Assembly: GCA_907163375.1 (NCBI GenBank)
Contig: CAJQUW010000926.1
Coordinates: 372,001-436,000, forward strand
DNA length: 64,000 bases
Origin: Prostheceraeus crozeri
Lineage: Eukaryota; Platyhelminthes; Polycladida; Euryleptidae
Direction: 5' to 3'
Position 1 is the first letter of the stretch, and the number at the start of each line of letters is the position of its first letter. Below, in pieces: positions 24,921 through 63,154 of this stretch. The position numbers and the translations under genes are program-made. A model generated the notes under the pieces. That model was not told the origin of the DNA. It was given only the letters and a program-made list of their open reading frames with translations, and made no database searches.

Positions 24921-24961
24921 CAGGGAGTTCTAAAGAACTCTTTGTACTTTAGAACTCCCTG
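24921..24961. repeat. Perfect 15-bp stem hairpin
   Basis: CAGGGAGTTCTAAAG is followed after an 11-nt loop by its exact reverse complement. No gene is nearby. Confidence 0.8.
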
Positions 24962-31080: not shown

Positions 31081-31379
31081 CAGCCATATTAAAGGAGGCC
31101 CCACAAATGGATCACATCGTTCATTCTAAGAGTTTACCTCTGAAATTAACATACAGTATGGCTCAGCAAGTTTGCATCAAGCCTGAAATTTGCAAATTTT
31201 GAGTGTATAACCATCTCAAATCAATATAAAAGCAAACATACCTCGTGATTATTTAGAATACATTGTATAGGATAAGAAAACATGAAAGTAGAAACTCTCT
31301 AAGTTACCAATATTAAGTGTGTCCACCACGGTTAGCGATCATTGAAGCTATTCGTCTTGGTACATTTTCAACCAATGGC

Positions 31380-39351: not shown

Positions 39352-39779
39352 ATGTTGGTGGTAGACGAGGTTCGGTTATTACATTTACTGTACACACTGA
39401 GTGTTTGCAGGTTATGCAGCAAGCAGTAAATACGGAAGATGGAACAGGTTGTCTATGTGCTTCTCGTAAGTGCACGCATGTGACCTCATTGGCTACATAT
39501 GGATAACGATGTAAGCGTTGACCATTAATACGAATGGTTTCATATACAAATGATTTCAAGAAGTAGTGCCTCCTGCCGGTCGAGTAGCTATCTAAAGGTC
39601 ACCGCCGATCCTGGTACTACCAACCTCACCATTCTCGACATTATTTGTAATATTTATATGCCGTCTTAAAAGTTATAAAATGAACAATTTCTTCTCTGAA
39701 TGATTACACGCTATCTCACTAATTATATACAGGGTGGCGCCAAATTTCAAGCCTCGAATTCCCGGGCGATCCCCGGTCT

Positions 39780-39990
39780 ATTTTTCCGAACTTCCACGCT
39801 GTTTTTCATTTTTACGAGATATGCCATTCCAATTACACCGCTGAAAATTATCCGGACATTTCTTTAAAATATCCTTATCATAAAAATTGAGACATTTCCA
39901 GTTTGAATTTTGAAACTAAATTTTGACGCAATAGATAATGAACGATGTTTGACTTTATCGCACTCAGTTATCAAAATTTTTGAATTCTGT
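39780..39990. repeat. Inverted copy of the repeat at 30900-31080
   Basis: It carries ATCCGGACATTTCTTTAAAATAT and AATAGATAATGAACGATG, the diverged inverse of the block near 31 kb. It is preceded by ATACAGGGTGGCGCC at about 39730, a phrase also seen in part near 30070. Confidence 0.55.
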
Positions 39991-42900
39991 GAGCGATGGT
40001 TCTTAAGTTTATAAGCTTGACCTTTTCCTCAATGACGTGCACTTAATGAACAGCTTGGGATCTGAATGATTTCATATCGACAGAAAAGCTAATTTCCTGA
40101 ACTTTCCAAAGATCAAAAATTCTTCATTTTCATCATCTGATTCATAAAATTCTAGAAAGTTGTATTCAGCCGATTTATCACACTGAAATAATCATATAAG
40201 TTAAGTTGAAGCAACAAATGACAAGGAACAACCATGAAATCAAAATGTGCATGTTGATGCAATGGCGCGTTGATACCAAGCTGTCAATAAATATCACCAC
40301 AGGATGTCATCACTCAGACGTTTTACTGCTCAAAAAGTTTTGAGGTTGTGAAATATCTTAAAACTCACCAACTTAATAATGTGAAGACATATGACTTTGT
40401 AGCACGACTCACAACTTTAATTACATACGTGTATCACTAGAGGATGCATAATTTGCCATAGTGCGATTCTGTTACGATGGAGCCGCAAAACAGGTATACG
40501 ATGAACAGTTAGGCCCAGTCGTGGAGTTCCGATTATTATCAAAGAAAAGCGCTTACAAAAACTGGAATCATCCTTTGTACGATAAGGTCCCGGTCTTGTA
40601 GCAAAATTTGTTGATAACAAGGATGTTTATGTTTTTTCAACTGTTGACAACGCAGGAGATGTTGAGAAAGAATGAGCTCTTCCAGGTACTCAGCGAATTC
40701 GGTACAAAAAGCCAATCACAGTTGTAATGTATAAGCAAACAATGGGCGGCGTAGATTAGATACCAATTGCTTGCATCATCTACCTGCGTCCGACAGTCAT
40801 TTGTATGGTCAAAAAAGTTTGGCATCAGTATGATCGAGAGCTGAGTGTTTGACGCCTTCGTCATGAAAAAAATAGAAGCATGAGTCTATTGGAATTCAGA
40901 AACAGGTCAGAACACACCTTATCGGTATTGAATCGTGCCCAACGAGGTAGACAAGAGAGGTTGCGAAATGAAGAACTATTAGACAGCATTGCAAACAAAA
41001 TACATGTACCTTCTTAAATATCTCAATACAAGAAAACACGAAGGAAATGCATTCAATGCTCAAAACAAAACGTTCGGAGAATACTTTCCACGAGTGCAAG
41101 GATTGTGATGGAACATCTCTGTGTTTGACCAAGTTGGGGTGAGTGGCATGAGTAAACCTGAATTTACATCTTGTGGACATCTTTTAAAAATGTTTGTATG
41201 TGCATGAAACATATTCACATGGGTGATTTTGTGATTTCCGAGTTATTCAATATAATAAAGTAAATAATAATTCGACATTTTTTTGTTCCTGGCATTTCAG
41301 GTGGAAATATATTGTATCGCAGCTAGGAGGTCAAATTTGCATCAGTATTACTATTGTGGTAATTTTTCGAAGCAATAATCCGCTTTTATTATTCATTATT
41401 TTATCTCTTTTACTAAAACATAGACTGTGCAACCATCACGATATCCAAAATGAATACCAATAATAACTGAAATGGCATCATGCGTATAAAGCATCGAAAT
41501 GAGGCACAATCTTCATTTACGTTTTCATGAAATCAAATAAGTAGGCCTACTGCATTTCAGAAACAGAACTTCAAAGGCTTGAAACCAAATCTCAAGCTTA
41601 GAATTAAGTTTCAGTCTTTTTCTTGCGTCGATCCGGGATATCCAAAGTTAATTCCCTCTCATGAATGATGCATGGCATTAGGGACACAGCGCTAAATCGT
41701 TGGACAACTTTAATTCCGTTAACGGAGTTTACTAATGATGCATGATTATGAATTGAGGATTCAGTAAATTCTGAAGCACATACAGAACTTAGACTTCTGT
41801 ACTTTCGATCTATATGCATTTCATTCTAATTCTGTAGTGAAGCTCAATTATTTTTTACTTTTCCCTTTTCTAGCGGTAGCTCGCAACCGGTCGCGTGAAT
41901 CCACAGGTTATCTCGCTTCTACCGTGTATGTAGATAGTTTAATAAGATTGGAATTCTTCAGGTCAGGTGCATTATCAGCCCTGGTACTAAAATTTCAGGT
42001 ATATCAGCGGATTTTTTATGTACAATACACATAATAAAAACCGAAAAATCCAGCTGTATTATAAAAGACATTACAACAGACATTGTTACTGGAACCTTCT
42101 TTCGTTCTGTAGCATATCTCGAGAATTATAATTTCTCCAATGCAAAACAGATAGATTCGCAAGAGTAAAGTTTGAGTAAAATACGATGCATGATCGACTA
42201 ATATCTTGATGAACCACGTGGATTCAAAAAATTGATGTTTTAAACACTACAATATTATTTCCTGATATCAACATTGATTGTATTCAATGCATACAATACC
42301 GCAGAGAGAAACGTAGACCAATTTGATATTCTGCCCACGAAGTATTAATACGAGTTCAAGAGCGATGACACGCTTCCGAAACGAGCAGAATCAGTCGGTT
42401 TCGGTGATTAATGTTCCGCCTCCATCACTTTTGGATATCATTTCACTCAAAGTTTATGCCAATGCAGCCATGTCATCCAAATGGCACCTCTTATGTCGCA
42501 GTCGCATTAAACATTGCAGAAATCAGTTTTCGTATATTCCCACATGAGAAATCATAGTGGAGGGTGTTGTTGCCAACCTTCCAATCGCACCGCGACAATT
42601 GTGAAGATTGCTGCATGTCCCATTATCTGTCATTCATGAATCGATGTGTTTTCAGAAAAGGTCTTGGCTAAATTTCACAAATACCGCCTTCCTTCCTATT
42701 CACAGCGATTACATAGGTCCATCGAATTGGTGTTTGAAATGTGAAATTAAAAAAATGAAGGATTGTTGCTTCTCAGTGAATTGTAATAATTAAGCAGCAC
42801 ATATATATGATATTATGTAACCCAAGTGCTGACTGCAATATCGTCGTCAAATAACAGGGGAATGTTTTTTGGCTAAATATGAAGCAGACCATGTCAGATG

Positions 42901-43224
42901 TGTAGGTATGCTTCCAAATCTCAGTTCAGCTTCTCCTGTCAATTCTTGCGATTGTAGCTTTCAAGTGAGGCTATGCTTAGAAATCTACATTCTATGCCAC
43001 TCATCAGCATATCAATCATCATTCGATACACGGTTTTTTCATCTCCATAAATCTACAGCAGAGAAATTAAGCCATACAAACCATGGAGTAACATTTGTCA
43101 CATGCGGTTTTATGACAATTATTAAAATAAGTTTATTTCTTTAAATAAAATATCCTGCTCACAAAATTTTCTGCTTCATTCTTTGCCACTCAGAATCTCT
43201 ACTTTAGGCTTCTCTCTATCATTA

Positions 43225-44052
43225 GATTCGACCTGAATGTGATAACCCTGTCCACAAACATACTAAATTGGACCTGCTGATTCGATTTCTGTTGTTGTCT
43301 TCGAACGAAATGCTGCGGTTGCAAGTCTTCGTACAACATTTTTCAATTTCACATATATTTTACACACTTTCTCCAGTTTGAACTCCTCTCAATCAATTGA
43401 TTCGACCTGAATGTGATAACCCTGTCCACAAACATACTAAATTGGACCTGCTTATTCGATTTCTGTTGTTGTCTTCGAACGAAATGCTGCGGTTGCAAGT
43501 CTTCCTACAAACATTTTTCAATTTCACTTATATTTTACACACTTTCTCCAGTTTGAACTCCTCTCAATCAATTGATTCGACCTGAATGTGATAACCCTGT
43601 CCACAAACATACTAAATTGGACCTGCTGATTCGATTTCTGTTGTTGTCTTCGAACGAAATGCTGCGGTTGCAAGTCTTCCTACAACATTTTTCAATTTCA
43701 CATATATTTTACACACTTTCTCCAGTTTGAACTCCTCTCAATCAATTGATTCGACCTGAATGTGATAACCCTGTCCACAAACATACTAAATTGGACCTGC
43801 TGATTCGATTTCTGTTGTTGTCTTCGAACGAAATGCTGCGGTTGCAAGTCTTCCTACAACATTTTTCAATTTCACGTATATTTTACACACTTTCTCCAGT
43901 TTGAACTCCTCTCAATCAATTGATTCGACCTGAATGTGATAACCCTGTCCACAAACATACTAAATTGGACCTGCTGATTCGATTTCTGTTGTTGTCTTCG
44001 AACGAAATGCTGCGGTTGCAAGTCTTCCTACAACATTTTTCAATTTCACATA
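43225..44052. repeat. 174-bp tandem repeat, five copies
   Basis: Units begin GATTCGACCTGAATGTGATAACC at 43225, 43399, 43574, 43748 and 43922. Copies are almost identical with a few single-base changes. The last copy is truncated after the TTTCAATTTCACATAT phrase. No coding sense is apparent. Confidence 0.9.
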
Positions 44053-45038
44053 TTCAAATTCATTCAATCACTGTCCAGGCTTCACATTTGGTGTTTCTTT
44101 AACAAACGAAGTCCGAAACACATCAAACAGCACTCAATAATTCCATTCATAACCTCCAATTCTCGATGATGTGCGCTATCAGATGACTTGGTCAAGACAA
44201 TCAAATTAATAGGAATTGAGTAATTTTTGTTTAAACCAGTCAGATTCCATTTGTGTGAATATATTCTGAGAATTCAACAAATAACTGCTGATTATTTAGC
44301 AAATCAGTTACTTTGCAAAATAACCGAAAATAATAAAAAAAGGCAAAATTGCTGCAAATATTCGCACGAAATTAAGGTTTCCCAGAAAAATATCTAAGTT
44401 TATGACGTATTATAGCAATAATGTGGATATTTCACTTCAATTAAGCTAACGAACAAAACATGAAATCTTCGCTAGATTCCGAAGGTGAAATACTTAAATA
44501 AAAGATTAATAACGCTCACACCAAAGCCAACGGAAGGACATTATTAATTCAAAATGTTGATTAATATATAATGAAGTATGTTGATGCAAGAAAAATTAAA
44601 AATTTTACACGTCTAGGTACTGTGGGCCTAGTTTACCCGTTACCCTTTTGATTGATGACAGTCAACTGGTTTGAAGAGACTATCTAAGACCAAGCGTTTC
44701 TTAGCAAAACCTAAAATACAAACAACTTGCAAGTAATTGATATTCATCAAGTGATACTCGTAATTGCCTTAAGAATAAAAAAATTCAATAGTCATTTCGG
44801 AAAACTTCGCTAATATGGCTTTGAAAACAGTATTTATTAATATATTTTATAATTTTATACTTTGTATCATTAAATATCTGTCCTATTATATTGTCAAATG
44901 ACTCTAAGCTTTTGAGGTGTGACTAACTAAAAATAATCGTTAATTGGCTGCCAAAGACTGCAACACTGCGACCGAAGGGATAACACACGTGATTCTAATT
45001 ATTCCGCAAATTTAAAAAGAAGGTTACTACTCATCGAA

Positions 45039-45352
45039 GATGGCTGACCGTATTTTTTTGATACACTCTAACAAAAATGATTTCCATTTTTTTAACATGC
45101 GTTCAATGGGGAGTTTTCCATAATGTACCAAAATTTGCTTTAAATAATGAGACATTGAAAGAACTTGATTCAACAGTGGCTACTACTCCAATGCCTCAGG
45201 CGATGAAAATGCCAACAAATTGGTTTAAGACGTCACCTGCTACATCCCCTCCCACACTCACTAAGCAAACAAGAGGAAGAACTCGACGTAGATCTACATC
45301 GCCACTAAAACTGGTAAAAGGAAAACGTAAAACAGCTCCTCCTAGGAAATAA
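45039..45352 (+). pseudogene. Small basic C-terminal protein at the start of the right block
   Basis: An ATG at 45039 opens a 27-residue frame (MADRIFLIHSNKNDF) that stops at about 45122. A second frame then carries the coding-like NVPKFALNNETLKELDS and a strongly basic tail (TRGRTRRRST, KGKRKTAPPRK) to the stop at 45352. The two pieces probably formed one protein separated by a single indel. The tail suggests nucleic-acid binding or a virion core role. The family is not recognised. Confidence 0.45.
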
Positions 45353-45587: not shown

Positions 45588-46636
45588 ACGTTTGAAGTCA
45601 ATCTATTATGATGTAAAACATCCGGCAGGATTTGCATCTATCAAGAAATTATCAAAAGCGAGTGGTCTTCCACAATCACAAGTGAAACGATGGTTAAAGG
45701 GTCGCTACCTATACACTCCACAAACAAGCGAAAAAGAAGTACCGCACCCGCCATTATATTGTTCATGACATCGATGAACAGTGGCAAGCAGATTTGTGCG
45801 ATGTTGCCTCCATTTCAAAACATAACTCGGGCAATAATTTTATTTTAACCGTCATTGATATTTTCTCGCGTTATGCGTGGGCTCAACCTTTAAAAACTAA
45901 AGAAGGGAAAGGAGTAGCAAAAGCATTCCAAACAATTTTTCGAGAAGGTCGCATTCCAAAAAGAATTCAGAGTGGTCAAGGAAAAGAGTTTGAAAATCAG
46001 CATGTGACAAGATTATTTGAGAGGCATGACATTGAGTTCTTTAGTGTAAAGAGCGCTTATAAAGCTGCACTCGTTGAACGTTTTAATCGCACATTAAAAA
46101 ATCGCTTGTGGCGACATTTTACTGCCAACTTGACACAAAATTGGACAAAGGTTCTACAAGATACACTCCATGCCTACAATCACTCTATCCATCGTTCTAT
46201 TGGTCTCAGACCAGTAGATGTAAATGCTGACAATGTAGATAAAGTGCGCGAATCATTCCAACGTAAACGCACTCATGTGAAAAGTGATGTGAAAATTGGC
46301 GATAAAGTTCGTATCTCAAAAGTGAAAAGTGTTTTTGCTAAAGGGTACCTTCCGAATTTGACAGAGGAGGTATTTACAGTATCAAGGATTAATCAAAAAG
46401 ACTCTCCGACCACCTACAAGTTGAAAGATTACGATAATGAAGAAATTGAGGGTAGCTTTTACCGCGATGAGATTGAGGTAGTCACTGAAAGTGAAACATA
46501 TTTGGTAGAGAAAATCATTCGATGTAAAAAACGGCAAGGTGAAGAATGGTGTCTTGTTAAATGGACTGGTTATCCTTCAAGTATGAACTCTTGGATGCGT
46601 CGTGCCGACATCTTTCATCTAAGTGATCGACAGTGA
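45550..46636 (+). pseudogene. Retroviral-type integrase with chromodomain, frameshifted and catalytic Asp lost
   Basis: The N-terminal zinc-binding/helical part (LKSIYYDVKHPAGF, VKRWLKGR) is in one frame and the rest in another; the break lies at about 45698-45712. The core shows WQADLCDV (first Asp), VIDIFSRYAW, IQSGQGKEFEN and LVERFNRTLKN (Glu). In this family the residue before QGKEF is the second catalytic Asp; here it is Gly (codon 45974-45976). The C-terminus is a chromodomain (LVEKIIRC, CLVKWTGYP, SWMRRADIFHL). Integrase inserts the element into host DNA with short target duplications, and chromodomains guide target choice. This copy should be inactive. Confidence 0.9.
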
Positions 46637-46677: not shown

Positions 46678-47133
46678 ATGAATCCAACTGCCTCATTTTA
46701 TTCACGACCCTCCTATGTAAGTGGTGGAGAACAAATTTACATCGGTGCTCGCCGCCAACGTGGAGGTAGCATACTTGGTGCACTGAAATCTGTTGTAGCA
46801 CCTCTCATATCCAATGTCGGTAGATCTTTAAAACGAAATGTTTTAAGTAATGCCGTTGGCTTTGCTGGTGATGTTGCTAGTGATCTTTCCAGAGGTAGAA
46901 GTTTTAAGAGCAGTTTGTTGAATCGTGGGAAGGAACGCGGTTTAAAAACATTGAAGCAGACCATTGCTGGTGTTACTCAAGGAAAGAAATCACCTAAACG
47001 AATGAATAAAGGAAGGAGGAAACATCGCGGAGCTGGTAAGGTGCGATCTTCAGTCAAAAGGCATTCACGCAAACGTCGTAGAGGCTCTAATCATTCATCA
47101 GGCGCTAAACGACGACGCTGCTATAACTTCTAA
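46678..47133 (+). CDS. Basic virion core/minor-capsid-like protein
   Basis: 151 residues. After a short N-terminus it has RRQRGGSILGALKSVVAPL, an amphipathic segment, then a second helix with GDVASDLSRGRSF, and a very basic C-terminus (KKSPKRMNKGRRKHRG, KRHSRKRRRG) ending KRRRCYNF. It lies directly before the capsid gene (2-nt gap). The composition recalls adenovirus core and pVI/pX-like proteins that bind DNA or membranes inside the particle; the role here is inference from composition and position. It shares a GG-x-L-x-A hydrophobic block with the product at 7841-8203. Confidence 0.6.
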   Translation: MNPTASFYSRPSYVSGGEQIYIGARRQRGGSILGALKSVVAPLISNVGRSLKRNVLSNAVGFAGDVASDLSRGRSFKSSLLNRGKERGLKTLKQTIAGVTQGKKSPKRMNKGRRKHRGAGKVRSSVKRHSRKRRRGSNHSSGAKRRRCYNF

Positions 47134-47135
47134 TC

Positions 47136-48881
47136 ATGGAGTGTAAAACTTCCGGTTTTTGTTTGTTCGATCAACAAGCCATACAGACAGATATTCTTAG
47201 TTCAAGTATTGTAGATTATCATCCTCGAACAGCTGAGAATGCTGGCCCCATTGAATTTGTTATTCCTGGTGGTACACTAGACGAAATGACTTGCTAGGTC
47301 TTACTAAGTCTGATCAGATTCTTGCAAAGTCTGATAAGAACTTATTTTATTTAAGATCTTACATTTCCTGACCAGAAAGTACCAGACTTACTAAGTCTTA
47401 TATTTTGCAAAATAAGATCTTTTCAGATCTTACCAGCTGATAATTGAAATTAAGAAAAGTGAACTGAAATTTAAAACTTGAAGTCCGATTACTGTGAGAA
47501 GATCAGACGATATCAATGGTTTTAGTTCTTAAATGATCTTGCTGGAACATCAGGGCACTATATGTATGTAGAGAAACGCAAAATATAAGACTTTTTTCTA
47601 CTCAAAAGTATTCTAAAATTCACAAATAAGATCTTATCAGATCTGATCAGATTTGCTAATAAGACTTAGCACGACTGGTACTTTCTGGTCAGAACTTGTA
47701 AGACTTCCTTAGTAAGATTAAGTAAGTCATTTCGTCTAGTGAGTGATGACTACATAGATTTGAGTTATGCGATGCTTGATTTGAGGTTTAGAATTCAGCA
47801 AGCAGATGGAACTGCTATTGACGATGCACATAAAGTTGGACTGAACAATTTACCATTGACTACATTACTTCGCGATGTTTCTCTAACGATTGGAGAGCAG
47901 CAGGTGGAAGGTGGTCAAAGCGATTATCCCTATAAATCATATTTCAATCATGTATCACAGTTTCATCCAGCAGCACAAAAACGTCATATGGAAGCCATGG
48001 GATGGTACAGAGATGAAGCAGGAAAATTTGATGTTGAAACAAACAGTGGCTTTGTAAAGCGATCTGCTATGATTAAAGATAGTAGAGTATGTCAGCTATA
48101 TGGTCCGCTGAATTTAGACTTCTTTAGACAGTCAAAGTTTTTACTCTGTAATACCAGCATGCGACTCAAGCTGACATTGAATAAGCCTGAATTTGCGCTG
48201 AATGCATTTGCTAAAGTTGACAATTTTAGAATTCATGTGGAAGATATTGCACTTTACATTCGTCGAGTAGTACCGAATCCAAGTGTCATTAGAGGGCATG
48301 CTGAAGGTCTTAACCGCCAAAATGCCATTTACCCCGTTCAGCATACAAAGCTTCTCACCTTTACAATTCCGAAAGATCAAAAGAGTTTCATGAAAGATGG
48401 CCTCTTTCCATCGGAAGCACCGAAGCTCCTCATGGTGGCAATGGTTGAAAATGATGCATTTAATGGTAATATAAAGAAGAATCCTTTCAATTTTAAACAC
48501 AATCAGTTAAGTGAAATTGCTTTACGTGTAAATGGTGTGAGTCATCCTGGTCCACCCTACAAACCAGATTTTGCTTCGGATCAATTTATGCGCAGTTATG
48601 TTGATTTTATGGATGTCTTTGGCTTTTACAATACGGATGACACCAACGGACTGACTATGAAAGAGTTTAAGAGTGGATATACTATTTATGCATTTGATTT
48701 GACTGCTGACAGCGATATTAGTGCACCCTATCGTCAAGCGAACGTGCCTCATAATATTCGTTTGGATTTGACGTTCAAAAGAACACTAGCTGAGACGATC
48801 AATGTATTAATTTATGCAGTCTTCGATTCAAATATTGAAATTACAAAGTATCGTGACGTGATTCTTCAGTATAATCGTTAA
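47136..48881 (+). pseudogene. Major capsid protein (double jelly-roll type), split by an insertion
   Basis: ATG 47136 starts a frame containing DQQAIQTDI and PIEFVIPGG, which runs into the inserted element and stops at 47295-47297. The rest of the gene resumes at about 47742 with DDYIDLSYAMLDLRF and continues 380 codons to 48881. Features typical of Polinton major capsid proteins are the DYIDL strand, LTIGEQQVEGG, YPYKSYFNH and the LLTFTIPK region. The stop TAA at 48879-48881 overlaps the protease ATG. The gap is one MITE-like insertion of about 467 bp; no other break was seen. It would form the icosahedral shell if intact. Confidence 0.85.
47275..47741. mobile_element. MITE-like insertion inside the capsid gene
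   Basis: The ends are inverted repeats, CACTAGACGAAATGACTT on the left and its inverse at 47724-47741. Subterminal copies of AAGATCTTA, CTGATCAGAT and TACTTTCTGGTCAG recur in both orientations, giving the whole a loose palindromic structure. No ORF is inside. A target-site duplication could not be resolved: flanking bases give only about 1 bp in common. Confidence 0.85.
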
Positions 48882-49342
48882 TGAGTTGGTTGACTGCTGA
48901 CGATATTAAGACTAAAGTGCAGCGTAATGCAGACGAAGCGACGTTGAAAGCTTTCGATAATGTCTATTCACTCGATACCTTACCACCTGCAGTAAATCAC
49001 TATCCCATCTTTATTGTGCTAAACACTCATTCACAGAATTTAGGCGGTGAGCATTGGAAAGCGATCTTTATTGGAGAAGACCGACGTGGTGAACTATTTG
49101 ACTCTCTTGCTCAACCTCCAAATATACCAACACAGCAGTGGTTGAGAAAACATACGCGTCAATATCAGCGAAATGAACGCATACTACAACATCCACTTTC
49201 ATCAACGTGTGGTGCTTTTGTACTGTACTTCATCTTAAGACGTTTACATGTATCTCGATTTGCATCTGTTATTCAAAACTTTTCATGTAATCCATCCTCT
49301 AATGAAAAAATGATTTGTAAGTTCTATCATGATTTGAAATAA
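48881..49342 (+). CDS. Adenain-like cysteine maturation protease
   Basis: 153 residues, intact. The catalytic set of the adenovirus/Ulp1-like fold is visible: His in GEHWKAIFI, an acidic residue in ELFDSLAQPP, Gln in ILQHPLSSTCGAFVLYF and Cys in STCGAF. These proteases cleave capsid and core precursors during virion maturation. Length is close to the Polinton norm. The gene overlaps the end of the capsid gene, and its stop codon is embedded in AATAAA (49338-49343), so the + strand transcript probably ends here. Confidence 0.9.
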   Translation: MSWLTADDIKTKVQRNADEATLKAFDNVYSLDTLPPAVNHYPIFIVLNTHSQNLGGEHWKAIFIGEDRRGELFDSLAQPPNIPTQQWLRKHTRQYQRNERILQHPLSSTCGAFVLYFILRRLHVSRFASVIQNFSCNPSSNEKMICKFYHDLK

Positions 49343-49368: not shown

Positions 49369-49914
49369 TTATTTTACAATCCGCTGGGTACGTACATACT
49401 CAATGAGATAGTCTAGGATCATATTTGCTTGTACATGAGATTTTAGTCCAGTAATGATCACTTTACTATTATGAAAGATTGCCACATGCACAGGTAACCA
49501 ACAACTAATGAGAGCTGCAGGAAAAAGTTCGGGTTCATAACACAAACTGTAACTGCTGGTACGAATCTTCAAAAATGATAGACTGTCACTCAATTGAGTA
49601 GAGATCACCATATTGTCCACAGTCAGATTCGACATCACACACCTCTCCCTCTTCCATATCCGATGTAGTAGTCTTTGTAGCTCTAAGCGCATTGACTGCG
49701 CCGATGAATGAGAAAGGGCGCCGAGAATCTGTACAGTCCCATTTGGGAAGAGTTGAAGATTCCGTGAATTGTTCATCTTCACCACTAACATTTGAGGACG
49801 GCCCGGGTAATACTTGCTGTTTGGAAGCTGTTGGTGTAATGTTGTGAGATCGATTTTGGTGTAGAGTCTGAAGCGACGGAGAATGTTGACGATGGTGTAG
49901 CGATGGCGCTTCAT
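49369..49914 (-). CDS. TATA-binding-protein-like protein (two-repeat TBP core)
   Basis: 181 residues from ATG 49914, the size of a TBP core domain. Two halves repeat the same pattern: residues about 6-85 (IVNILRRFRL, KIDLTTL, YYPGRP, LQLFPNGTVQILGA) and 96-175 (VDNMVISTQL, YEPELFPAALI, VAIFHNSKVIITG). In TBP each half supplies a Phe pair that kinks DNA; here F56, F131 and F147 occupy three of these places and P40 stands at the fourth. YEPELFP is identical to the classical TBP second-repeat motif. Upstream in-frame codons to 50058 overlap the neighbouring gene and are probably not coding. The stop TAA lies within AATAAA (minus). The protein could recruit transcription to the TATA promoters of this element. 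Confidence 0.8.
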   Translation of the reverse strand: MKRHRYTIVNILRRFRLYTKIDLTTLHQQLPNSKYYPGRPQMLVVKMNNSRNLQLFPNGTVQILGALSHSSAQSMRLELQRLLHRIWKRERCVMSNLTVDNMVISTQLSDSLSFLKIRTSSYSLCYEPELFPAALISCWLPVHVAIFHNSKVIITGLKSHVQANMILDYLIEYVRTQRIVK

Positions 49915-50236
49915 GATGAAAGAATGAGTAAATTGAGCGATGTACCTTCCTTTTATACTTTTCCCAACTACCTTGATGAAATGTGAAGTTAGTATGAAGT
50001 TGGGAATGATAGAGTTGAATTCGCCGATTGTTGACGCGCAGCCAGATGCGATTTCCAATACGTGAATGTCTTTTCATATAGAAGTATTTCAAGTCCTTCA
50101 TGATATGATGTAGAGATTGAAAATGACGATAAGATAAAGCAAACTCTCTTCTCACATTTCCAGTTGAATTTTTGAAATAGACGTTTCGATCATGATCCGT
50201 TTCAATACGTTGTAGGGAATCTAATTTCCAACTCAT
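49586..50236 (-). CDS. PC4-like paralogue 1, C-terminus overlapping the TBP-like gene
   Basis: ATG 50236. Residues 1 to about 108 (LDSLQRIETD, VYFKNSTGN, RHFQSLHHIMKDL, IQLYHS, WEKYKRKVHRSI) are clearly homologous to the product of the gene next door at 50259-50615. The following 100 codons run antiparallel-frame through the TBP-like gene and have low-complexity Ser/His content, so the original stop may have been lost. The build (dipeptide-rich strand, then a helix with Leu/Trp) suggests the single-strand-DNA-binding PC4 coactivator fold, but this is a hypothesis. It is directly upstream of the TBP-like gene on the same strand. Confidence 0.5.
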   Translation of the reverse strand: MSWKLDSLQRIETDHDRNVYFKNSTGNVRREFALSYRHFQSLHHIMKDLKYFYMKRHSRIGNRIWLRVNNRRIQLYHSQLHTNFTFHQGSWEKYKRKVHRSIYSFFHHEAPSLHHRQHSPSLQTLHQNRSHNITPTASKQQVLPGPSSNVSGEDEQFTESSTLPKWDCTDSRRPFSFIGAVNALRATKTTTSDMEEGEVCDVESDCGQYGDLYSIE

Positions 50237-50258: not shown

Positions 50259-50615
50259 TTAAGATTTGCATAGTAGGGCGATGAACTCACGACGAATAAA
50301 TGTCATGATGGAGCGATGTATATGTCTTCTATACTTCTCCCAATTGTATTTGCGAAATGAGAAACAGTTTGCGGAATGAGAATGGTAGATTTGAATTTCA
50401 TTTCTGTAATGTTGAAGCCAAACTTGATCACCCAAGGAGATGAATCTTAATGTTTCAAAATATTCCAAATCCCTCATGATATCATTGAGGTTGACAAATT
50501 GTCGCCATGTTAATGTAATTCCTCTTGATGTATGACCATGAGAATTTTTGAAATGTACGTTTCCATCACGATCAACTCTGATATATTGTAGAGAGTCCAA
50601 AATCCAAGTCTTCAT
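50259..50615 (-). CDS. PC4-like paralogue 2
   Basis: 118 residues from ATG 50615 (the frame is open to a TTG at 50627). LDSLQYIRVDRDGNVHFKNS, then ITLTWRQFVNLNDIMRDLEYF, then GDQVWLQHYRNEIQIYHS and WEKYRRHIHRSIM. It shares many identities with paralogue 1 along the entire length. Two strand-then-helix units per protein resemble a doubled PC4 motif, where a basic strand and a Leu/Trp helix hold single-stranded DNA. It is followed 22 nt later by the ATG of paralogue 1 and is divergent from the capsid-type gene at 50651, sharing a very short intergenic region. Confidence 0.5.
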   Translation of the reverse strand: MKTWILDSLQYIRVDRDGNVHFKNSHGHTSRGITLTWRQFVNLNDIMRDLEYFETLRFISLGDQVWLQHYRNEIQIYHSHSANCFSFRKYNWEKYRRHIHRSIMTFIRREFIALLCKS

Positions 50616-50650: not shown

Positions 50651-52048
50651 ATGTCGTTTTATCATATTTTGCTTAGCAATGCGGCTACAAAGAGATTTAC
50701 TAGTAATCGAGCCGCACTCTTTTCTACTCCCATTGATCATGCACAACAGCTAAATGGAAATTGGGAAGTGGGTGTCACTCAACTTGTTTATAGCAACTGT
50801 GTCTATACTTTTGATCATGAGGTGATGACTATTAATATGAGACGTACAGCTGCTTATCAATGTGAAAAGGGGTGCCGAGTATACATTACACAGTGGCCAA
50901 AGAAAGATCTCTTATCATGTAAAAAGTTTATATATGATTTATTGAATAAAGCGTGTAAACATATTGTCCAATTTACTCCGCACAATGATGATTATAATTA
51001 TGTACATCATGTAGTTGAGAAAGATTGGATTGTTGGTTTAAGTCCAAGTTTAAGAAATGATTTAGGCTACCTCGCTAGCGCCTTAACAAGCTATGATAAT
51101 TTTAACGTTAATTACCACATAAGTGGTCATAAACAGTTAATATATCGAGAGGAAGCTTATTATGTAGATCTTATTCCAAGAAATGAGAAGACGTTGGTGA
51201 AGAAGATTGTGATTAAGCCAAGAAAGACAAACATGACTCCTGAAACATTATTGAAGAAATTTAATTATCTCCTTCGAGTTGATGGTAAACAAGTGGCAGC
51301 ATTGACTTATATTAAATCATCTAATCATATTGCAATAAGTAAATTAAATGATGATGATCTAGTATTAGTTTGTTCAAAAGATTTTCATCAGTTCTTACGA
51401 CATCGTTCTGCAGCTGTTCATGGAAAATCTGATATGCAACATTTACCATGTGAAAGGTCAAATCAATTTGATACAGAATGGACCGTATCTTTATACAGAA
51501 AGTGTGTAGAGCCTTTAGGTGGTATCTTACATGAAACAAGAGTGTTGATGCCTCGCATTATTACTTCGGTTAAATTGGTTGTAGATTATTTAAATGAAGT
51601 GATTAATGAGCAACATATTTCATTTTCTGAAAAAGAAGGTACTTTGTCTCTCACTATAAGTGGAAAAGGTATTGAACTAATTATGGATAAAACTCTAATG
51701 GACATTTTGGGTTTTGACAAAAATATCTTTAAAAGTGGTACTGTAACCAAAGCTAGCGCAGACATGTCGCTATCGCGTCGTATTAACTATTTTCAGATAT
51801 ATTCCAATATTGGTGAAGATGTACGTGTGGGAGATGTTGAAGCTCCATTGCTAGCAATGATACCATACCAGCCAAAAAGCTGCAGTATTTTATCTGAGCA
51901 TACTTTCAAGAAAGTGCATTATACAAAGCTGAAATCAAACTACATCCCACAAATTGATATTGCCATTTATGACGATGCTGGTGCGTTGATTCCTTTTCAT
52001 AAAGATGCTGTGACAAGTATCACACTCCATTTCCGAATGAAGAGTTAA
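50651..52048 (+). CDS. Penton/minor-capsid-like protein 1
   Basis: 465 residues from ATG 50651 (an alternative ATG at 50630 adds seven residues). The order of motifs matches the Polinton minor capsid family: FYHILLSNAATKRF at the start, LNGNWEVGVTQLVY, a middle region, then IYSNIGEDVRVGDVEAPLL and a terminal LIPFHKDAVTSITLHF. In the family the C-terminal block is the best conserved and the WEVGL strand is diagnostic. The jelly-roll protein occupies the capsid vertices. The adjacent gene at 52058 is a paralogue. Confidence 0.7.
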   Translation: MSFYHILLSNAATKRFTSNRAALFSTPIDHAQQLNGNWEVGVTQLVYSNCVYTFDHEVMTINMRRTAAYQCEKGCRVYITQWPKKDLLSCKKFIYDLLNKACKHIVQFTPHNDDYNYVHHVVEKDWIVGLSPSLRNDLGYLASALTSYDNFNVNYHISGHKQLIYREEAYYVDLIPRNEKTLVKKIVIKPRKTNMTPETLLKKFNYLLRVDGKQVAALTYIKSSNHIAISKLNDDDLVLVCSKDFHQFLRHRSAAVHGKSDMQHLPCERSNQFDTEWTVSLYRKCVEPLGGILHETRVLMPRIITSVKLVVDYLNEVINEQHISFSEKEGTLSLTISGKGIELIMDKTLMDILGFDKNIFKSGTVTKASADMSLSRRINYFQIYSNIGEDVRVGDVEAPLLAMIPYQPKSCSILSEHTFKKVHYTKLKSNYIPQIDIAIYDDAGALIPFHKDAVTSITLHFRMKS

Positions 52049-52057: not shown

Positions 52058-53608
52058 ATGCTAATATATTTTTTCAATGTGAATAATATGGAAAGTGAAA
52101 ATAAGGACTCGTTTCTAATCTACTTGCCCAGTAATGTTTCTATGAATAAATTTCCCAAAAATAAACCATCAGACTATCGAGTAGAATTAAATCGCCCACT
52201 GCATTTAGAAGGTGAATGGGAGGTTGGCGTTTCTAGTATTTGCTATGATAGCAATATTCAGAATGTGAATGATTTGGAAGAAATGATATTGACTCCTCGC
52301 ACCCATGATGGAATAACGATGAATAATGCATTTCAGTTCCCATACAATTTAACATCAGATGGAAAGTGGAACTATGAATGGATTCAGATAAAATCAGATT
52401 CTTATGAGCCATTTGGGAATGAGAAAATTATTAAGGCATTCAACAGTGGTAATACTTCCATCATGAAGAATAAAAATCAGAAAGCTTATGAGTTTACTAT
52501 CTATCATTGGAGTGGGAGACAGTTCCTTCGCTTTCATTCTTTTACTAAAGGTCTTACACTGAGGTTGGATAATGAATTCTATCCGCATCTCGGTTTTGGT
52601 CATGGACTACATCTAACGTCAATTGCTACTGCAAATGTTAGAAAAGTTTATTCAAATCGAATCAACAAATTTCATTATAGATTTAAAATATTTGATGAAG
52701 ATGTTGTAGAATGTGAAGAACGCATCATTTTGAAAAAGCGTGGTGTTCAACCTTTATCACTTATTGAGTTAGTAAAACGATGGAATGAGACTGTGGGTAA
52801 GAAGTATGGGGAGAAAATTATGGCGGACAAAAATAAGTTGGTTATTCAGAAATATAATGACAAACTTACAGTTTATTTCTCTCCAACCTTGCGTCATTTT
52901 GTAAGACATTATACACCTATTATTGGAAGCGGTGTGGTGTATGCTTCTCATGAATATCACACTAAAGCTGATTCAGTTAATGATGAATGGTGGGTGGACA
53001 TCTATGCCGATCGCATCAAGAAAATTTACCAGTCTTATGAAGAATCTAAAGTTGCTATCAATATAATGCCGCGTCTATATCATACAGTTGAAAGCTTCAT
53101 TCATGTAGTAAATCCTTATATACAACAGAAGTTGAAGCATGTGATGAAAAGTAAATATGATGCAAAGACACACCACATTTCGTTTTCAATTGAAAATCAA
53201 CGCGTTGTTCTGAGACTGGGTGATGACATTCAATGTCAATTGAGTAAAAATTTGAAAAAACTCTTTGGCTTTTCAATGCTACAAACTGTGTTTGCTGCTG
53301 CGCATACGATTGGTATAGAAACACCAATGACACTTGATAAACATGAACAGCACCTTTACATTCAAAGTGATTTGATTTTACCTATTTCTGTTGGCGAGAA
53401 AAAAGAATACATTTTACGTGATTTCATTCATGATAAAGACGCTTCATATGGAATAGTCGAGAAGATGTTTGAATCTATTTTCTATCATCCCGTCGTCAAA
53501 CAAACTATACCCTCTATTGCTATCAAAATTACCAATGGTTTACAAGAGTGTATCCATGTGAAAGATACTAAATCTCTCATAACGTTAGTGTTTCGGAAAA
53601 CAAAGTGA
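52058..53608 (+). CDS. Penton/minor-capsid-like protein 2 (paralogue)
   Basis: 516 residues from 52058; a second ATG at 52088 (MESENKDSF) is equally likely. FLIYLPSNVSMNKFP, then DYRVELNRPLHLEGEWEVGV give the classic N-terminus of this family; late motifs are LYIQSDLILPISVGEKKEYIL and SLITLVFRKTK. It shares with gene 1 the WEVGV block, a FRHF-type segment (HFVRHY), a W-x-V-x-[IL]-Y strand, a MPR segment and the VG-x-LL region. It is followed by a poly(A) signal at 53632, so both genes probably form one transcript unit. Confidence 0.75.
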   Translation: MLIYFFNVNNMESENKDSFLIYLPSNVSMNKFPKNKPSDYRVELNRPLHLEGEWEVGVSSICYDSNIQNVNDLEEMILTPRTHDGITMNNAFQFPYNLTSDGKWNYEWIQIKSDSYEPFGNEKIIKAFNSGNTSIMKNKNQKAYEFTIYHWSGRQFLRFHSFTKGLTLRLDNEFYPHLGFGHGLHLTSIATANVRKVYSNRINKFHYRFKIFDEDVVECEERIILKKRGVQPLSLIELVKRWNETVGKKYGEKIMADKNKLVIQKYNDKLTVYFSPTLRHFVRHYTPIIGSGVVYASHEYHTKADSVNDEWWVDIYADRIKKIYQSYEESKVAINIMPRLYHTVESFIHVVNPYIQQKLKHVMKSKYDAKTHHISFSIENQRVVLRLGDDIQCQLSKNLKKLFGFSMLQTVFAAAHTIGIETPMTLDKHEQHLYIQSDLILPISVGEKKEYILRDFIHDKDASYGIVEKMFESIFYHPVVKQTIPSIAIKITNGLQECIHVKDTKSLITLVFRKTK

Positions 53609-53787: not shown

Positions 53788-56700
53788 TTATGTCAATACA
53801 TCTCCTGAATGTGGTAGCGTGAGTTTTATTCTTTTGGGTGGAGGTATGTTTGTGTCAGGATGTCCATGTGGAAGAGATGTGTTATGTCCTATCCAACACC
53901 TCTTATCCTCCCATGCTGAAAGTGCTCGTTTCTTGAACGTGTACGTTTTCACAGTATGAACTTGAGATTTTAAGATTGTCATATTGACAAACGTTATAGT
54001 TTTATTTTTATAGGCCTTCTTATAGGACCGATGTTTCATTTTATGAACAATGGATTTTGATATACCTTTAGCACGCTTAATACTATCTGCACATTCTTTT
54101 AGTTTCATGGAATACATTTTAGGACGGAGGAGAATCATTTCATCTATTTCCTTTCCTGCTGTTTCATCCTTAAAACAACCAAGTTTGGCTTTATTCTGTA
54201 TGGAATAGAGTGGATGAGTGGGATTGTAGTTAGATGTGTCGAAATATTTTTCTAATGACTTGCCTACTTCATTAAAATTTAAATCTTTTTGAGTGGTAAT
54301 TCCTAAAAAGAAACTATCTGTATCACCACCCAGCAAGCGAACCTCTTTTACGAGAGGGCATGGTTTTTATATTTTGTAGAAGAGTTGATACATTTCAAGC
54401 TTGGAATAATCTAAAACGGCTTGCCCAATATAGATGGGTTTGCACAACTCAACTTCTGATTTAATCATTTTAACACCTACAAGATCCTCATCGATGATGT
54501 CTCTATCAATGAAAAGAGGTGATGAGGTCAATTTGTGATATTTTTGTTCATCAACGACTAGTTTGTAATTCATACGTTTTCTAACATCCTCCATGGTCTT
54601 ACCGAATAGACTGTTATTCTTATATTTATAAAAAATCCTTTTCAAAATTATTTTGGGCGAGTGCACGTTTTTGACTGTTACTATCTATGTAGGGTTTGAG
54701 GAAGGCTTTCTGTCTAAATTTGATAATGCGGTGAACTGACTTTAGAAGCATGCCCATTTCTAAATAGAATTTTAATATGCAGAAGTGTACGAGATAATTT
54801 TTCTTATCATATTGGGTGAGTAAAAGTTTGCGGCATGGTTTGTACCTTGGCTGTCCACACTCTGTTAAGTTATTATGAAATTGTGACATGAATGGTGAAA
54901 ACATATCTTCAGTCACTTCACCAGATTCAGGTGCGAGTGGGAAATCAGCAGTTTTATTTTTAATGCTATTTGGATAAATCAAATCCACTTCAAAATAATA
55001 TCCCCAATCACCTTCATCTGGAATCTTCAGTATGTTTGAAGGGTTGGAGTAATACTCAAGCTCATCTTGATTTAACCAACTAAACTCGGAATGAGTTAGT
55101 GGTTTAGACAGTGAACTGCCATATAAATTATTTTGGTCATAGTACTTTAGGTGGATATGATCATCACCTACTGTTTCAGATTTTATATGATGTTTATTTA
55201 CAAATGTGAGACCACCGCGTATTCCGCGCTCAAATATATTATACATCTCCGGGTCTTGTAAGAGATGAATGGTCTCACCAGTCATTTTAAAGGCTGATTT
55301 AAAGGACATGGCTGGTAGACTGACAAAGTGGACAGGATCTAATTTGTCTTCTTCTAATGCCACTCGTCGAAATTCCTGAAAGACGTCAGCCAGCAAAATG
55401 ACATATAATTCTAAGTAAGCGATCATATAATCGCCAAACGTTTTACAATCAAATTTTAACCATGCCTCTTGAGCATGTTCATAGTCCTCTACTGGACAAT
55501 CTTCACCCGTCAAATCGTTTTTGAATTTGTCAATGGAAGGAAGGGTTGTTTCATTTAGTTTAGACATTGAGCTAAAATACGCATGGGGAAAGACTCCTTT
55601 GCGAGTGATTATTTCATCCGTTAAGTTTGGATAGTGTTTCTTCAAAGTTTGACTATGGGGAAGAAACTTGAGATTTCGAACGAGAGAAGCTAGTGACGCT
55701 GACATGAATTGAAATGAATCTAAAAATTTTATTTCGAAGAAGACTGTCTTATTTTCTTTAGTTTTATCTATTGGTACTTTTGCTGTCATTGCCATGAATT
55801 TTTCTCTCGTTTGTGCTATTACATTAAACTGCCACGATTTCATCTGGCTCAACCCTCCTTTTATGAGCATATGACTGTCATAGCCCTTAAAGTTATGAAA
55901 AATGACGGGTAGTACACGACGTCTCAACCTAAGTGAAAAGTTACATTTGGAGCAGAGTGCGTTTCTAAATTTACCAGTGATGTGATCATGATCACGCACT
56001 TTCTTAATTTTATCGTCATCAAACGTTTTATGACATTTAGGACAGGATGTGCAACTTTCAAATTTTTGTTTGTCTTCATCTGACATATGTAGTGACTTAC
56101 GCTGCAATTGGGAATCATATGATTGTTGAAATTTAGCAGCTTTATCGAGAAATTCTAGAAATTTTGAAATGCAATCTTCACCTTGCCAAGTATGCATTTT
56201 GTTTTGTCTATTCCTAAAGTGGTCATGCCATACTTCATAGCAGGATATGGCTGCTGGCTTGTGGATGATATCATCAATGTAGCATTCTATGTCTGCGTAA
56301 ATGACACGCAGGGGACTTAATTCGTCACCATTATCCCTATGTGAAAATATTTTATCTTTGGGCATGCGTTCCATTTGTAATTTACCTCGCTTGCACCATT
56401 CATAGTGAGTTTCAAATTTATCTTTACTCCAAAAGGAGCGGATGCAGCGGTCGCATACAAAATGTTCACCTCTTTTAGAGTGCCCCAAGTGAGTGTACAA
56501 GCGAGAGATTTTGGGAATACCACAGTAGTGCCATTCCTCGCTATCATCTTGTTTTACTAATAAGAGGTTGACTACACGTTCATAACAAGTTGAACGTGAA
56601 TTATAGCGAGCACCCTTCAACCCCTTCTCCCACACGTGAACGACAATTTTAATCTTATTATGTTTTTCGAACGTTTCTACATCTTTGATTTTCATGTTGT

Positions 56701-57744
56701 TACTATCACAACCTTCAAAGTCTAGTTCATCCTCCCACTGTCTATAGCTATAGGTGCGATCTCGATGTGCGTTGATATCATTATAGTGAAGGATGGATAG
56801 GACTGCATATTTGAAACACTGTGATTTACAATCGACATTGATGACAGCTTTCTTATTATACAACGTTTTTGGTAGTCTAAATGTACCTCGAGCTGCATGA
56901 CTTTCTAATAGTGAAATTTTGAATATGGCTGAGTCCACACCATCAAAAATGAGAGCGCTGTCGCGTTGATTGAATTTATCTACATTTGATTTTAAACATT
57001 GAATGTGAAAATTTAGCCAAGACTCGCAGTCTACAACTTCGGTTGCGGAAGAGGAAGGAACATGAAACTGTATTCTCTCCGTCACTTGACCCGTTTGAAA
57101 ATCTATCTTAATATATTTTAGTTTAAGGTAGATGAGCGCCTTCATTCTAAAATTGTCTAAATTGTTGAAGAGCGCTTCGATAATGTTAGAATTTTGAAGG
57201 AGCCACTCAGGAAAATCTACTATTTGAGTATTGGACTCCATGCAGTAGTCGCGTACTAAATTATTATGTGAAACATTAATGAGGGAGATGGTAGAGGTAC
57301 CGTTGGTGTAGTGATCATTTGCATGCGTGTGTTGAAGTCTGTGCGAAGATCGCTGAAAGTGACTATCAAAAGAAAGAGGGCACAAATCGCAAGGAAAGGA
57401 GATGTCATCGTCAGAATCAACTTCACCTCCGGAGATTGACGCCGCTTTGCGTTGACACACACGTTGTTTGATCTGTCGAAGGAGACTGTGCTTCCTTGTA
57501 AACATATGTCCGCAGTCGGCACATTCCCACTCGTTGCCTTGTCGCGAGAGTCCTGAGCTGGAACTCACATCACCTGACAGAGAAATCAGTCTCAGTGTAT
57601 TGTTACAACCTACCTTGACTCAACGACTCTAAACTTTCCTCGAGAAGGGAGGGCGTTGGTGATGAAGTTGATGGCTGAAATTGAGGAAGATGCTATTAAC
57701 CACACGTTTGACGGAGATGAGTGAAGAAATTTTCAACTTACCAT
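53788..57744 (-). pseudogene. Protein-primed family B DNA polymerase, three exons, with frame breaks
   Basis: Exon 1 is only the ATG (57744-57742). A 67-nt GT-AG intron (57741-57675) is followed by a 61-nt exon, a 40-nt intron (57613-57574) and a long exon in phase. The N-terminus has two C2H2 fingers, a third finger (CDRC), the acidic domain also found at 7053, then an endonuclease VII-like CPKCHKTF / RDHDHITG / ALCSKCN motif. Exonuclease motifs are ADIEC (near 56290), FHNFKGYD and YVILLADVF. Polymerase motif A is YYDQNNLYG (near 55130), motif B NNSLFGKT (near 54610) and motif C DTDS (near 54318). A one-base indel in a T6 run near 54632 and an in-frame TAA at 54367-54369 separate these. Polintons use this enzyme for protein-primed replication. 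Confidence 0.9.
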
Positions 57745-62686: not shown

Positions 62687-62922
62687 TGCTCGGAAGAAAA
62701 CTTAAAATGGCTCTATCTCCGAAAGTATTCATCGTAGCGACATGCGGTTTGTTGCAAACGATTCGTCTCATCATTCTTTACAAAATGACACCTGAACCAT
62801 TCTCATATGACCACGGGAAGTTGGTCCGTCAGCACATGTGCATGTAACATGCCACAAGTGAAAAAATTCCTAAGTGTGAGAGCTCCAGTGTGGTGAAAAT
62901 TTTGAAAAATTTAAAACTTCCG

Positions 62923-63050
62923 AATTTCGACCTGGGACCTTTACCAAAACATTTTTCATCAAATTTCACTGACTCCCCCCCTCCCCCCCCTCGTTCAGAG
63001 AAATTTGATGAAAAATGTTTTGGTGACGGTCCCAGGTCGAAATTCCACAC
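62923..63050. repeat. Inverted repeat around C-tracts inside the right TIR region
   Basis: GAATTTCGACCTGGGACC and CCAAAACATTTTTCATCAAATTTC are followed, after two C-tracts, by their inverse (GAAATTTGATGAAAAATGTT and GGTCCCAGGTCGAAATTCC). A third, direct copy of the second arm starts near 63297. Confidence 0.8.
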
Positions 63051-63154
63051 TTTGGAAAATTTTCAAAATTTTACCCATACAAAGCCACTGACACTTAGGA
63101 TTTTTTCAGGTAAGCGAGCTCCGACCTAAAATCTTGTAACCGCTCTAACTTTTG

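What the first reader, a model, noticed from the sequence alone, without database searches (positions are those of the whole stretch)
49369..49914. A TATA-binding-protein-like gene inside a Polinton-type element
A 181-residue ORF shows the two-fold internal repeat of the TBP core, including the near-universal YEPELFP motif and three of four expected DNA-kinking Phe positions. TBP homologues are known in some large DNA viruses; I do not recall one in Maverick/Polinton elements. Together with the TATA boxes seen at several promoters of this element, it suggests self-provided transcription initiation.
Basis: partly seen in the sequence, partly recalled or inferred. Interest (0 to 1): 0.88.

Follow-up and report, generated by a model that had tools for sequence, protein, structure and literature searches.

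The report
Half-rewritten TATA-binding protein in Polintons
A virus-like mobile element, whose TATA-binding-protein gene was found at 150 places (the scoring limit) in one apparently animal genome, carries that gene intact and under purifying selection, with half of its predicted DNA-gripping surface changed, and the protein likely steers the host's RNA polymerase II to the element's own genes.

Summary
Confirmed and extended. The ORF is on the minus strand (49369-49914, 181 aa). It is a TBP-family protein: Pfam TBP 7e-20 and a saddle model (pLDDT 94) whose first 44 PDB matches are TBP chains. Its element is a canonical Polinton, window 4206 to 102 nt past the window end: AG-terminal inverted repeats, 6-bp CATCAT duplication, integrase, protease, ATPase, a polymerase frame. 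This copy carries a 35.8-kb and a 0.47-kb insert that four compared copies lack. The order protease-TBP-ORF216-ORF118 stands in 15 of 15 element loci read in this 2-Gb genome (one is the window's own); a very distant Polinton also has a TBP, one ORF from its protease. dN/dS between subfamilies is 0.22-0.25. Across 140 relatives the C-terminal half of the DNA face and the TFIIB-contacting EPEL stay near-canonical, while the N-terminal half is rewritten (Phe99 to Pro, Val122 to Gln, Leu114 to Gln, Thr124 to Leu/Phe/Met, yeast numbering). I infer a virus-encoded TBP that redirects host Pol II, working like herpesvirus late-gene vTBP but of separate make. 'TATA boxes at several promoters' is not supported: one well-placed TATAAAAGG, before the TBP gene itself. 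The papers searched showed no TBP in a Polinton.

The parts
49369..49914 (-). TBP-family gene, 181 aa
   Evidence: Pfam 7.1e-20; saddle model pLDDT 94.1; PDB matches; 61 relatives; dN/dS 0.22-0.25
49950..49957 (-). TATAAAAG box, first T 43 nt before the TBP start codon
   Evidence: TATAAAAGG in 12 of 14 genome loci printed; an Ile-Lys pair 20-23 residues before the core Asn in 13 of 27 relatives with leaders of 24 or more residues, as in-frame TATAAAA would give (no control run)
49586..50236 (-). ORF216, paralogue of ORF118; its frame overlaps the 5' 329 nt of the TBP gene
   Evidence: 44.6% identical to ORF118; present in 15 of 15 element loci
50259..50615 (-). ORF118, predicted PUR-alpha-like fold (single-strand nucleic-acid-binding type)
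48881..49342 (+). adenain/Ulp1-type protease next to the TBP gene, convergent with it
   Evidence: Peptidase_C48 E 0.001, 19.4 bits, just under the cut-off 20.7; 32% to the L001 protease, which passes the C5 and C48 cut-offs
47136..48881 (+). presumed major capsid gene, interrupted in this copy by the insert 47275-47741
   Evidence: 27% to the L001 431-aa protein; frames; the capsid name is recalled, no Pfam or convincing PDB hit
47275..47741 (.). 467-bp inverted-repeat (MITE-like) insert, absent from four compared copies
46678..47133 (+). small basic (Lys/Arg-rich) protein
   Evidence: a basic ORF stands beside the capsid gene in L001 too
45698..46636 (+). retroviral-type integrase with chromodomain (C-terminal part of the gene)
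   Evidence: rve 3.8e-9, Chromo 4.8e-7; 38% to the L001 integrase
50651..52048 (+). structural-type protein, paralogue of the next
   Evidence: related to L001 CP276, E 7.5e-8
52058..53608 (+). structural-type protein
   Evidence: 48% over 46 aa to L001 CP276, E 2.9e-7
53788..57619 (-). family-B polymerase region with C2H2 and endonuclease VII-like parts; frame broken in this copy
   Evidence: frames; Endonuclease_7 2.9e-6; 26% to L001 PolB over 135 aa, E 1.3e-5
8234..8719 (+). packaging ATPase
   Evidence: 36% to the L001 A32-like ATPase, E 7e-28 (L001 Pox_A32)
4206..5285 (+). left terminal inverted repeat; 5' end AGTAGTAAG, preceded by target duplication CATCAT 4200-4205
62859..64000 (-). 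right terminal inverted repeat, ending 102 nt beyond the window, followed by CATCAT
9295..45118 (.). 35,824-bp insert in this copy, flanked by the 7-bp repeat CATAATG; absent from four compared copies

Best explanation
This Polinton carries an intact, selectively maintained gene for a TATA-binding-protein family member whose predicted saddle is near-canonical in its C-terminal half but changed in its N-terminal half, and it likely directs the host's RNA polymerase II to the element's own promoters. Shown: the ORF, the TBP match, the position inside a canonical Polinton, the same neighbourhood in other copies, dN/dS near 0.24 between subfamilies, and the residue pattern. Predicted by model: the saddle. 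Inferred: that it binds DNA; that the kept C-terminal half and EPEL stirrup let it grip one half of a TATA-like site and hold host TFIIB; that the rewritten N-terminal half reads a different second half-site, which would favour element promoters over host ones; and that host Pol II does the transcription, since no scanned element ORF matched an RNA polymerase. The TBP gene itself has a TATAAAAGG box 43 nt before its start codon, so host TBP would likely switch it on first (early), and its product would then serve further element genes (late). The neighbouring ORF118/216 pair, with a predicted PUR-alpha-like fold, would be a plausible melting or co-activator partner; this is the weakest step.
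For: TBP identity. Polinton: ends 5'-AG, 6-bp duplications CATCAT (window), GATCTT and GGAGAA (two other copies), inverted repeats of about 1.3 kb in those two, integrase, protease, ATPase and Pol. Neighbourhood: protease-TBP-ORF216-ORF118 in 15 of 15 element loci, one of them the window's own; the distant Polinton L001 also has a TBP (Pfam 1.3e-36), on the strand opposite its protease and one ORF away from it. Selection: dN/dS 0.223-0.247 for the window against four other-subfamily copies; codons 110-181, outside the overlap with ORF216, 0.315-0.344. Copies: 150 of 150 scored matches at 99% or more identity, none with an internal stop. Residues in 140 proteins including L001: kept F116 139, N159 139, V161 139, E186 138, E188 139, F190 139, F207 140, T215 139; changed F99 to Pro 135, L114 to Gln 134, V122 to Gln 139, T124 to Leu/Phe/Met 139. 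L001 keeps all four Phe. The genome has an ordinary TBP exon of its own (Pfam 2e-42), only 23% identical over 100 residues, so this is not a fresh capture.
Against: No binding, expression or interaction data. The four-Phe rule is broken; TBP-fold proteins with lost Phe can fail to bind TATA (recalled: TRF2/TLF). TATAAAAG is not enriched in the window and only marginally in L001 (5 against 1.99; 11 of 200 shuffles reach 5), and no promoter motif is tied to this protein. In the window the TATA box overlaps ORF216 coding sequence (Tyr-Lys-Arg), so its conservation may partly be that protein's; 14 of 27 relatives with long leaders lack the Ile-Lys sign. The genomic surroundings of the metagenomic relatives were not seen. 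dN/dS among close copies is higher (L012-L014 0.67, L012-L013 0.38, L013-L014 0.37). The PUR fold match is weak.
Confidence: 0.6

Rival explanations
1. The protein competes with host TBP: it occupies host TATA sites or TFIIB without productive initiation and so dampens host or antiviral transcription.
For: The TFIIB-facing EPEL is kept while half of the DNA face is altered; no element promoter motif was found that it would need.
Against: The rewritten N-terminal residues are themselves near-invariant across the family, which suggests a specific new contact rather than loss; the gene sits among structural genes.
Confidence: 0.17
2. It is a DNA-bending architectural protein for replication or packaging (at the inverted repeats or on capsid-bound DNA), not a transcription factor.
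For: Kinking Phe are kept in three of four places; it lies beside the protease and presumed capsid genes.
Against: The TFIIB-contacting acidic pair is near-invariant in 140 proteins, which a pure bender would not need.
Confidence: 0.12
3. It is an autorepressor or copy-number governor that binds the TATAAAAGG box of its own gene and displaces host TBP there.
For: That box is the only TATAAAAG in the element proper and similar leaders are implied in 13 of 27 relatives with long leaders.
Against: The N-terminal half of the saddle, changed here, is needed for the canonical site (recalled); the box overlaps ORF216 coding sequence.
Confidence: 0.07
4. It is a captured host gene riding as a passenger without function.
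For: Polintons can pick up host genes (recalled).
Against: dN/dS 0.22-0.25, 61 and 182 relatives in two searches with a shared residue signature, presence of a TBP in a very distant Polinton, and only 23% identity to the host exon.
Confidence: 0.02

Closest known systems
vTBP of beta- and gammaherpesviruses (HCMV UL87, EBV BcRF1, KSHV/MHV68 ORF24)
   Same: A DNA virus that relies on host RNA polymerase II encodes a TBP-like protein to direct it to late promoters (PMC4893493 and PMC12529657, passages read; the name UL87 is recalled).
   Different: KSHV ORF24 has an extra C-terminal domain that contacts DNA, needs all four Phe, lacks the acidic residues for TFIIB and works with five other viral proteins. 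The Polinton protein is a bare 181-aa core, has three of four Phe, keeps the acidic pair, and matches Pfam TBP directly.
TBP and TFIIB of the algal virus CpV-BQ1
   Same: The authors propose that a virus-encoded TBP and TFIIB redirect the host's RNA polymerase II (PMC12085832, passages read).
   Different: A large algal virus with its own TFIIB, late factors and capping enzymes; the Polinton is 23-24 kb and no scanned ORF matched TFIIB. Sequences were not compared here.
Cellular TBP (TFIID subunit) and archaeal TBP
   Same: Two-repeat saddle over the whole length; C-terminal half of the DNA face and EPELFP kept.
   Different: 18-27% identity to solved TBPs; N-terminal half of the DNA face changed; no N-terminal extension; the genome has its own ordinary TBP exon.
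TBPs of mirusviruses and of mimivirus relatives
   Same: TBP genes in viruses: 59% of mirusvirus genomes, against 0% of Nucleocytoviricota in that survey (PMC10132985); a TBP is nonetheless named in Megavirus chilensis (PMC11464507). Passages read.
   Different: Far larger genomes (431.5 kb for one mirusvirus); Megavirus has eight RNA polymerase subunits of its own.
Maverick/Polinton elements and adintoviruses
   Same: AG ends, 6-bp duplications, inverted repeats, integrase, protease, ATPase, PolB-like frame.
   Different: No TBP reported in the papers that the searches brought up and whose passages I read; the others were judged by title and abstract.

Membership tests
TBP family (PF00352) | Profile match above the curated cut-off | tested here: met
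   71.1 against 22.9 bits
TBP family (PF00352) | Two-repeat saddle fold over the whole length | tested here: met
canonical (cellular-type) TBP | Four intercalating phenylalanines | tested here: not met
   F99 position is Pro40; Pro in 135 of 140 relatives. Filed as TBP-family, not as canonical TBP
canonical (cellular-type) TBP | Hydrophobic/Thr minor-groove residues in both halves (V122, T124 / V213, T215) | tested here: not met
   C-terminal half Ile153 and Thr155, N-terminal half Gln62 and Leu64
canonical (cellular-type) TBP | Acidic TFIIB-contacting pair in EPEL | tested here: met
   138 and 139 of 140 proteins
canonical (cellular-type) TBP | Binds TATA DNA and recruits TFIIB | not testable with these tools
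   needs purified protein
Maverick/Polinton | Terminal inverted repeats with 5'-AG ends and 6-bp target duplication | tested here: met
   window CATCAT, two copies GATCTT and GGAGAA; in a third copy the best repeat found (757 bp) did not reach the ends and showed no duplication
Maverick/Polinton | Retroviral-type integrase | tested here: met
   rve and Chromo above cut-off
Maverick/Polinton | Protein-primed family-B polymerase | tested here: inconclusive
   L001 passes DNA_pol_B_2 (9e-47) and the window Pol matches it over 135 aa, but neither the window part nor a 1273-aa open frame in another copy reaches a Pfam Pol model
Maverick/Polinton | Adenain-type protease and packaging ATPase | tested here: met
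   E 3e-19 and 1.5e-28 to the L001 proteins, which pass C5/C48 and Pox_A32 cut-offs; the window protease itself is just under the C48 cut-off and the window ATPase has no Pfam match of its own
Maverick/Polinton | Double-jelly-roll major capsid protein | tested here: inconclusive
   27% to the L001 counterpart, no Pfam or convincing PDB match
herpesvirus vTBP (UL87/ORF24) | TFIIB acidic residues lost | tested here: not met
   kept here; lost in ORF24 (PMC12529657)
herpesvirus vTBP (UL87/ORF24) | Extra C-terminal DNA-binding domain | tested here: not met
   the ORF ends with the saddle
PUR-alpha-like fold (ORF118) | Two-repeat PUR fold | tested here: inconclusive

The most novel reading that the evidence does not exclude
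Animal Polintons independently evolved a virus-specific TBP that captures host RNA polymerase II: an asymmetric saddle with one half canonical and one half re-specified reads a hybrid core promoter, holds host TFIIB through the preserved EPEL stirrup, and together with a neighbouring PUR-like protein forms a compact early-to-late transcription switch. It would be, as far as I know, the smallest viral replacement of a general transcription factor in an element with no RNA polymerase of its own.
Probability: 0.4. Interest if true: 0.88.

Novelty: new variant of a known kind. Interest (0 to 1): 0.78.

Why it matters
How Polintons time and direct their transcription is, as far as I know, open. A dedicated TBP would give them a transcription switch like that of herpesviruses, in a 23-kb element. 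The family-wide, one-sided rewriting of the saddle is a natural experiment on how a nearly universal protein changes its DNA code one half at a time, and it makes a clear in vitro prediction. The 150 near-identical intact genes show that the gene has travelled with a recent, very successful amplification.

Tried and rejected
Relatives in viral contigs: six scans (TBP single and profile, L001 TBP, capsid pair and single, integrase pair) gave no confirmed relative; phage records gave none. In the prokaryote genome collection 1 of 56 pattern matches was a relative (L001). A PC4-like fold was my first guess for ORF118; the search put PUR-alpha first, and PC4 was absent from the rows shown, which excludes nothing.

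Element promoter motifs: TATAAAAG not enriched. ATGCAAA lies upstream of 5 of 15 genes, and no 7-mer reached 5 in 300 shuffled sets; but the best 6-mer (6 genes) was reached in 11 of 300 sets and the best 8-mer (3 genes) in 73 of 300, one site is inside coding sequence and is changed in 3 of 9 copies compared, so I do not tie it to the TBP.

Tree: the family is a clade (100/99) apart from four cellular TBPs; L001 falls on a long branch beside the cellular ones, and the tool warns of long branches, so one or two captures cannot be told apart (20 representatives kept of 140, plus 4 references).

dN/dS used the 12 fetched loci with a full-length frame plus the window; three other element loci (L011, L016, L017) were dropped for broken or shortened frames.

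The idea that the 60-kb span joins two unrelated half-elements was rejected by the matching CATCAT at both ends and by four copies that lack 9295-45118. Copy number beyond the 150 scored could not be had: the DNA search did not complete. The surroundings of the metagenomic relatives stay unknown; a TBP and an ORF118 relative (P0002, P0067) both list a longest contig of 1771 nt, which is only suggestive.

Full report

THE ELEMENT. The window is C748:372001-436000 of a 2.05-Gb genome with an ordinary TBP exon of its own (Pfam 2e-42); I take the host to be an animal from that exon's sequence (inference). The element's left end is at 4206 (AGTAGTAAG, no mismatch to a pattern drawn from the ends of two other copies). 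Its right end is 102 nt beyond the window (L033 position 1102 = window 64102), and both ends abut CATCAT. Two other copies show GATCTT and GGAGAA duplications, inverted repeats of 1311 and 1374 columns and lengths of 23.1 and 23.7 kb; in a third the best repeat (757) did not reach the ends. So it is one Polinton, here swollen to about 60 kb by a 35,824-bp insert (9295-45118, between 7-bp CATAATG repeats) and a 467-bp inverted-repeat insert (47275-47741), both absent from the four copies compared. Genes: ATPase, integrase with chromodomain, basic protein, presumed capsid, protease, TBP, ORF216, ORF118, two paralogous structural-type proteins, polymerase. In this copy the presumed capsid gene is interrupted and the polymerase frame is broken. 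In three of the four sampled copies the corresponding frames are open (428 aa and 1272-1273 aa); the fourth has a shorter capsid frame (204 aa) and its contig ends before the polymerase.

IS THE TBP PART OF THE ELEMENT? In 15 of 15 element loci read (8 of the window's subfamily including its own copy, 7 of others; the sixteenth locus is the host TBP exon) the order protease-TBP-ORF216-ORF118 holds, although some genes in the older copies are broken. The protein search scored 150 of 11,885 first-look candidates; all 150 match at 99% or more without internal stops. Outside this genome, one contig mis-binned in a freshwater Limnohabitans MAG (L001) is a separate Polinton with PolB (9e-47), integrase, ATPase, protease and a TBP (Pfam 1.3e-36) on the strand opposite its protease, one ORF away from it and between two small ORFs. 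Its proteins match the window's integrase (38%), ATPase (36%), protease (32%), capsid (27%) and TBP (26%); its small ORFs gave no match to ORF118 or ORF216.

SELECTION. Window against four full-length copies of other subfamilies: dN/dS 0.24, 0.247, 0.245, 0.223. Outside the overlap with ORF216 (codons 110-181) the values are 0.344, 0.315, 0.317, 0.331; within codons 1-109, 0.163, 0.188, 0.189, 0.139. L015 against the other three gives 0.112-0.166. Those three among themselves give 0.37-0.67 on 24-26 differences, as expected if insertions drift. This is Nei-Gojobori counting in my own script, without a significance test.

THE HALF-REWRITTEN SADDLE. I aligned 140 proteins: the 61 hits, 77 more of the 120 listed out of 182, P0001 and L001. 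Yeast numbers are recalled and mapped by alignment (one search shows R39-P40 against Arg-Phe). C-terminal half: N159 139, V161 139, F190 139, F207 140, T215 139 of 140; V213 is Ile in 106, Met 19, Val 11. TFIIB stirrup: E186 138, E188 139. N-terminal half: N69 in all 117 that reach it and F116 in 139, but F99 is Pro in 135 (Phe only in L001), L114 is Gln in 134, V122 is Gln in 139, T124 is Leu, Phe or Met in 139, and V71 is Met in 97 and His in 18. L001 is canonical at F99, L114, V122 and T124 but has Ser at V71 and His at V213. The hit set was gathered by likeness to the window protein, so it describes this family and not all viral TBPs. Genomic surroundings of the metagenomic hits were not seen.

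PROMOTER. TATAAAAGG stands with its first T 43 nt before the TBP start codon, in 12 of 14 loci printed. Of 117 relatives with a readable start region, 27 have leaders of 24 or more residues before the core Asn; 13 of these carry Ile-Lys 20-23 residues before it, as in-frame TATAAAA would give (counted by hand, no control). In L001 a TATAAAAG lies 43 nt before the small ORF that diverges from the TBP gene. A TCATTC about 32 nt downstream of the box could be an initiator (inference). Since the box overlaps ORF216 coding sequence, protein constraint may explain part of this. Over the whole window TATAAAAG is not enriched.

LITERATURE. Searches for TBP or TATA with Polinton, Maverick, adintovirus, polinton-like and virophage brought up no report of a TBP in a Polinton that I could see. 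I read passages of PMC10675990 (TBPs in other elements of an alga, without double-jelly-roll capsid, polymerase or ATPase genes), PMC11071308, PMC10120064 and PMC12220804 (no TBP), PMC10132985 (mirusvirus TBP), PMC11464507 and PMC12085832 (TBP of giant and algal viruses), PMC13037468, PMC4722103, PMC7786948 and PMC11640650 (passages show no viral TBP). The remaining listed papers were judged by title and abstract alone. The adintovirus paper was not held, and subscription papers are mostly missing, so novelty is only as far as this shows.

Noticed in passing
window 9295-45118: A 35,824-bp insert between 7-bp CATAATG repeats inside the Polinton, absent from four compared copies; what kind of unit inserted is unknown.
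   Followed up: partly
window 33420-39358: A 138-bp satellite in 43.1 copies, 99% alike, strongly strand-skewed (GC skew about 0.31), leaving frames of 1979 and 1175 codons open on the minus strand.
   Followed up: no
window 47275-47741: A 467-bp inverted-repeat insert interrupts the presumed capsid gene in this copy; four compared copies lack it.
   Followed up: yes
window 49586-49914: The ORF216 frame overlaps the TBP gene by 329 nt in another frame; the overlap is also open in another subfamily copy (L014, 217 aa), while two others printed stop early (58 and 65 aa), so its coding status is unclear.
   Followed up: partly
window upstream of 46678, 50236, 50651, 52058, 8234: ATGCAAA (octamer-like) upstream of 5 of 15 genes; no 7-mer reached 5 in 300 shuffled sets; conservation mixed.
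   Followed up: partly
L001 1-11130: Most of a Polinton, with a TBP that keeps all four Phe, sits mis-binned in a Limnohabitans genome assembly (JASGCW010000101.1).
   Followed up: partly
window 54626-57619: The polymerase N-terminus carries a weak C2H2 finger and an endonuclease VII domain; its polymerase part does not reach a Pfam Pol model even in a copy with an open 1273-aa frame.
   Followed up: no
own genome: At least two TBP-bearing Polinton subfamilies, 82-86% alike in TBP; two full copies match the window's at 98-99.8% DNA identity over the long genic stretches, two others are lower in parts (82% in the polymerase region of one, 92-93% in parts of the other).
   Followed up: partly
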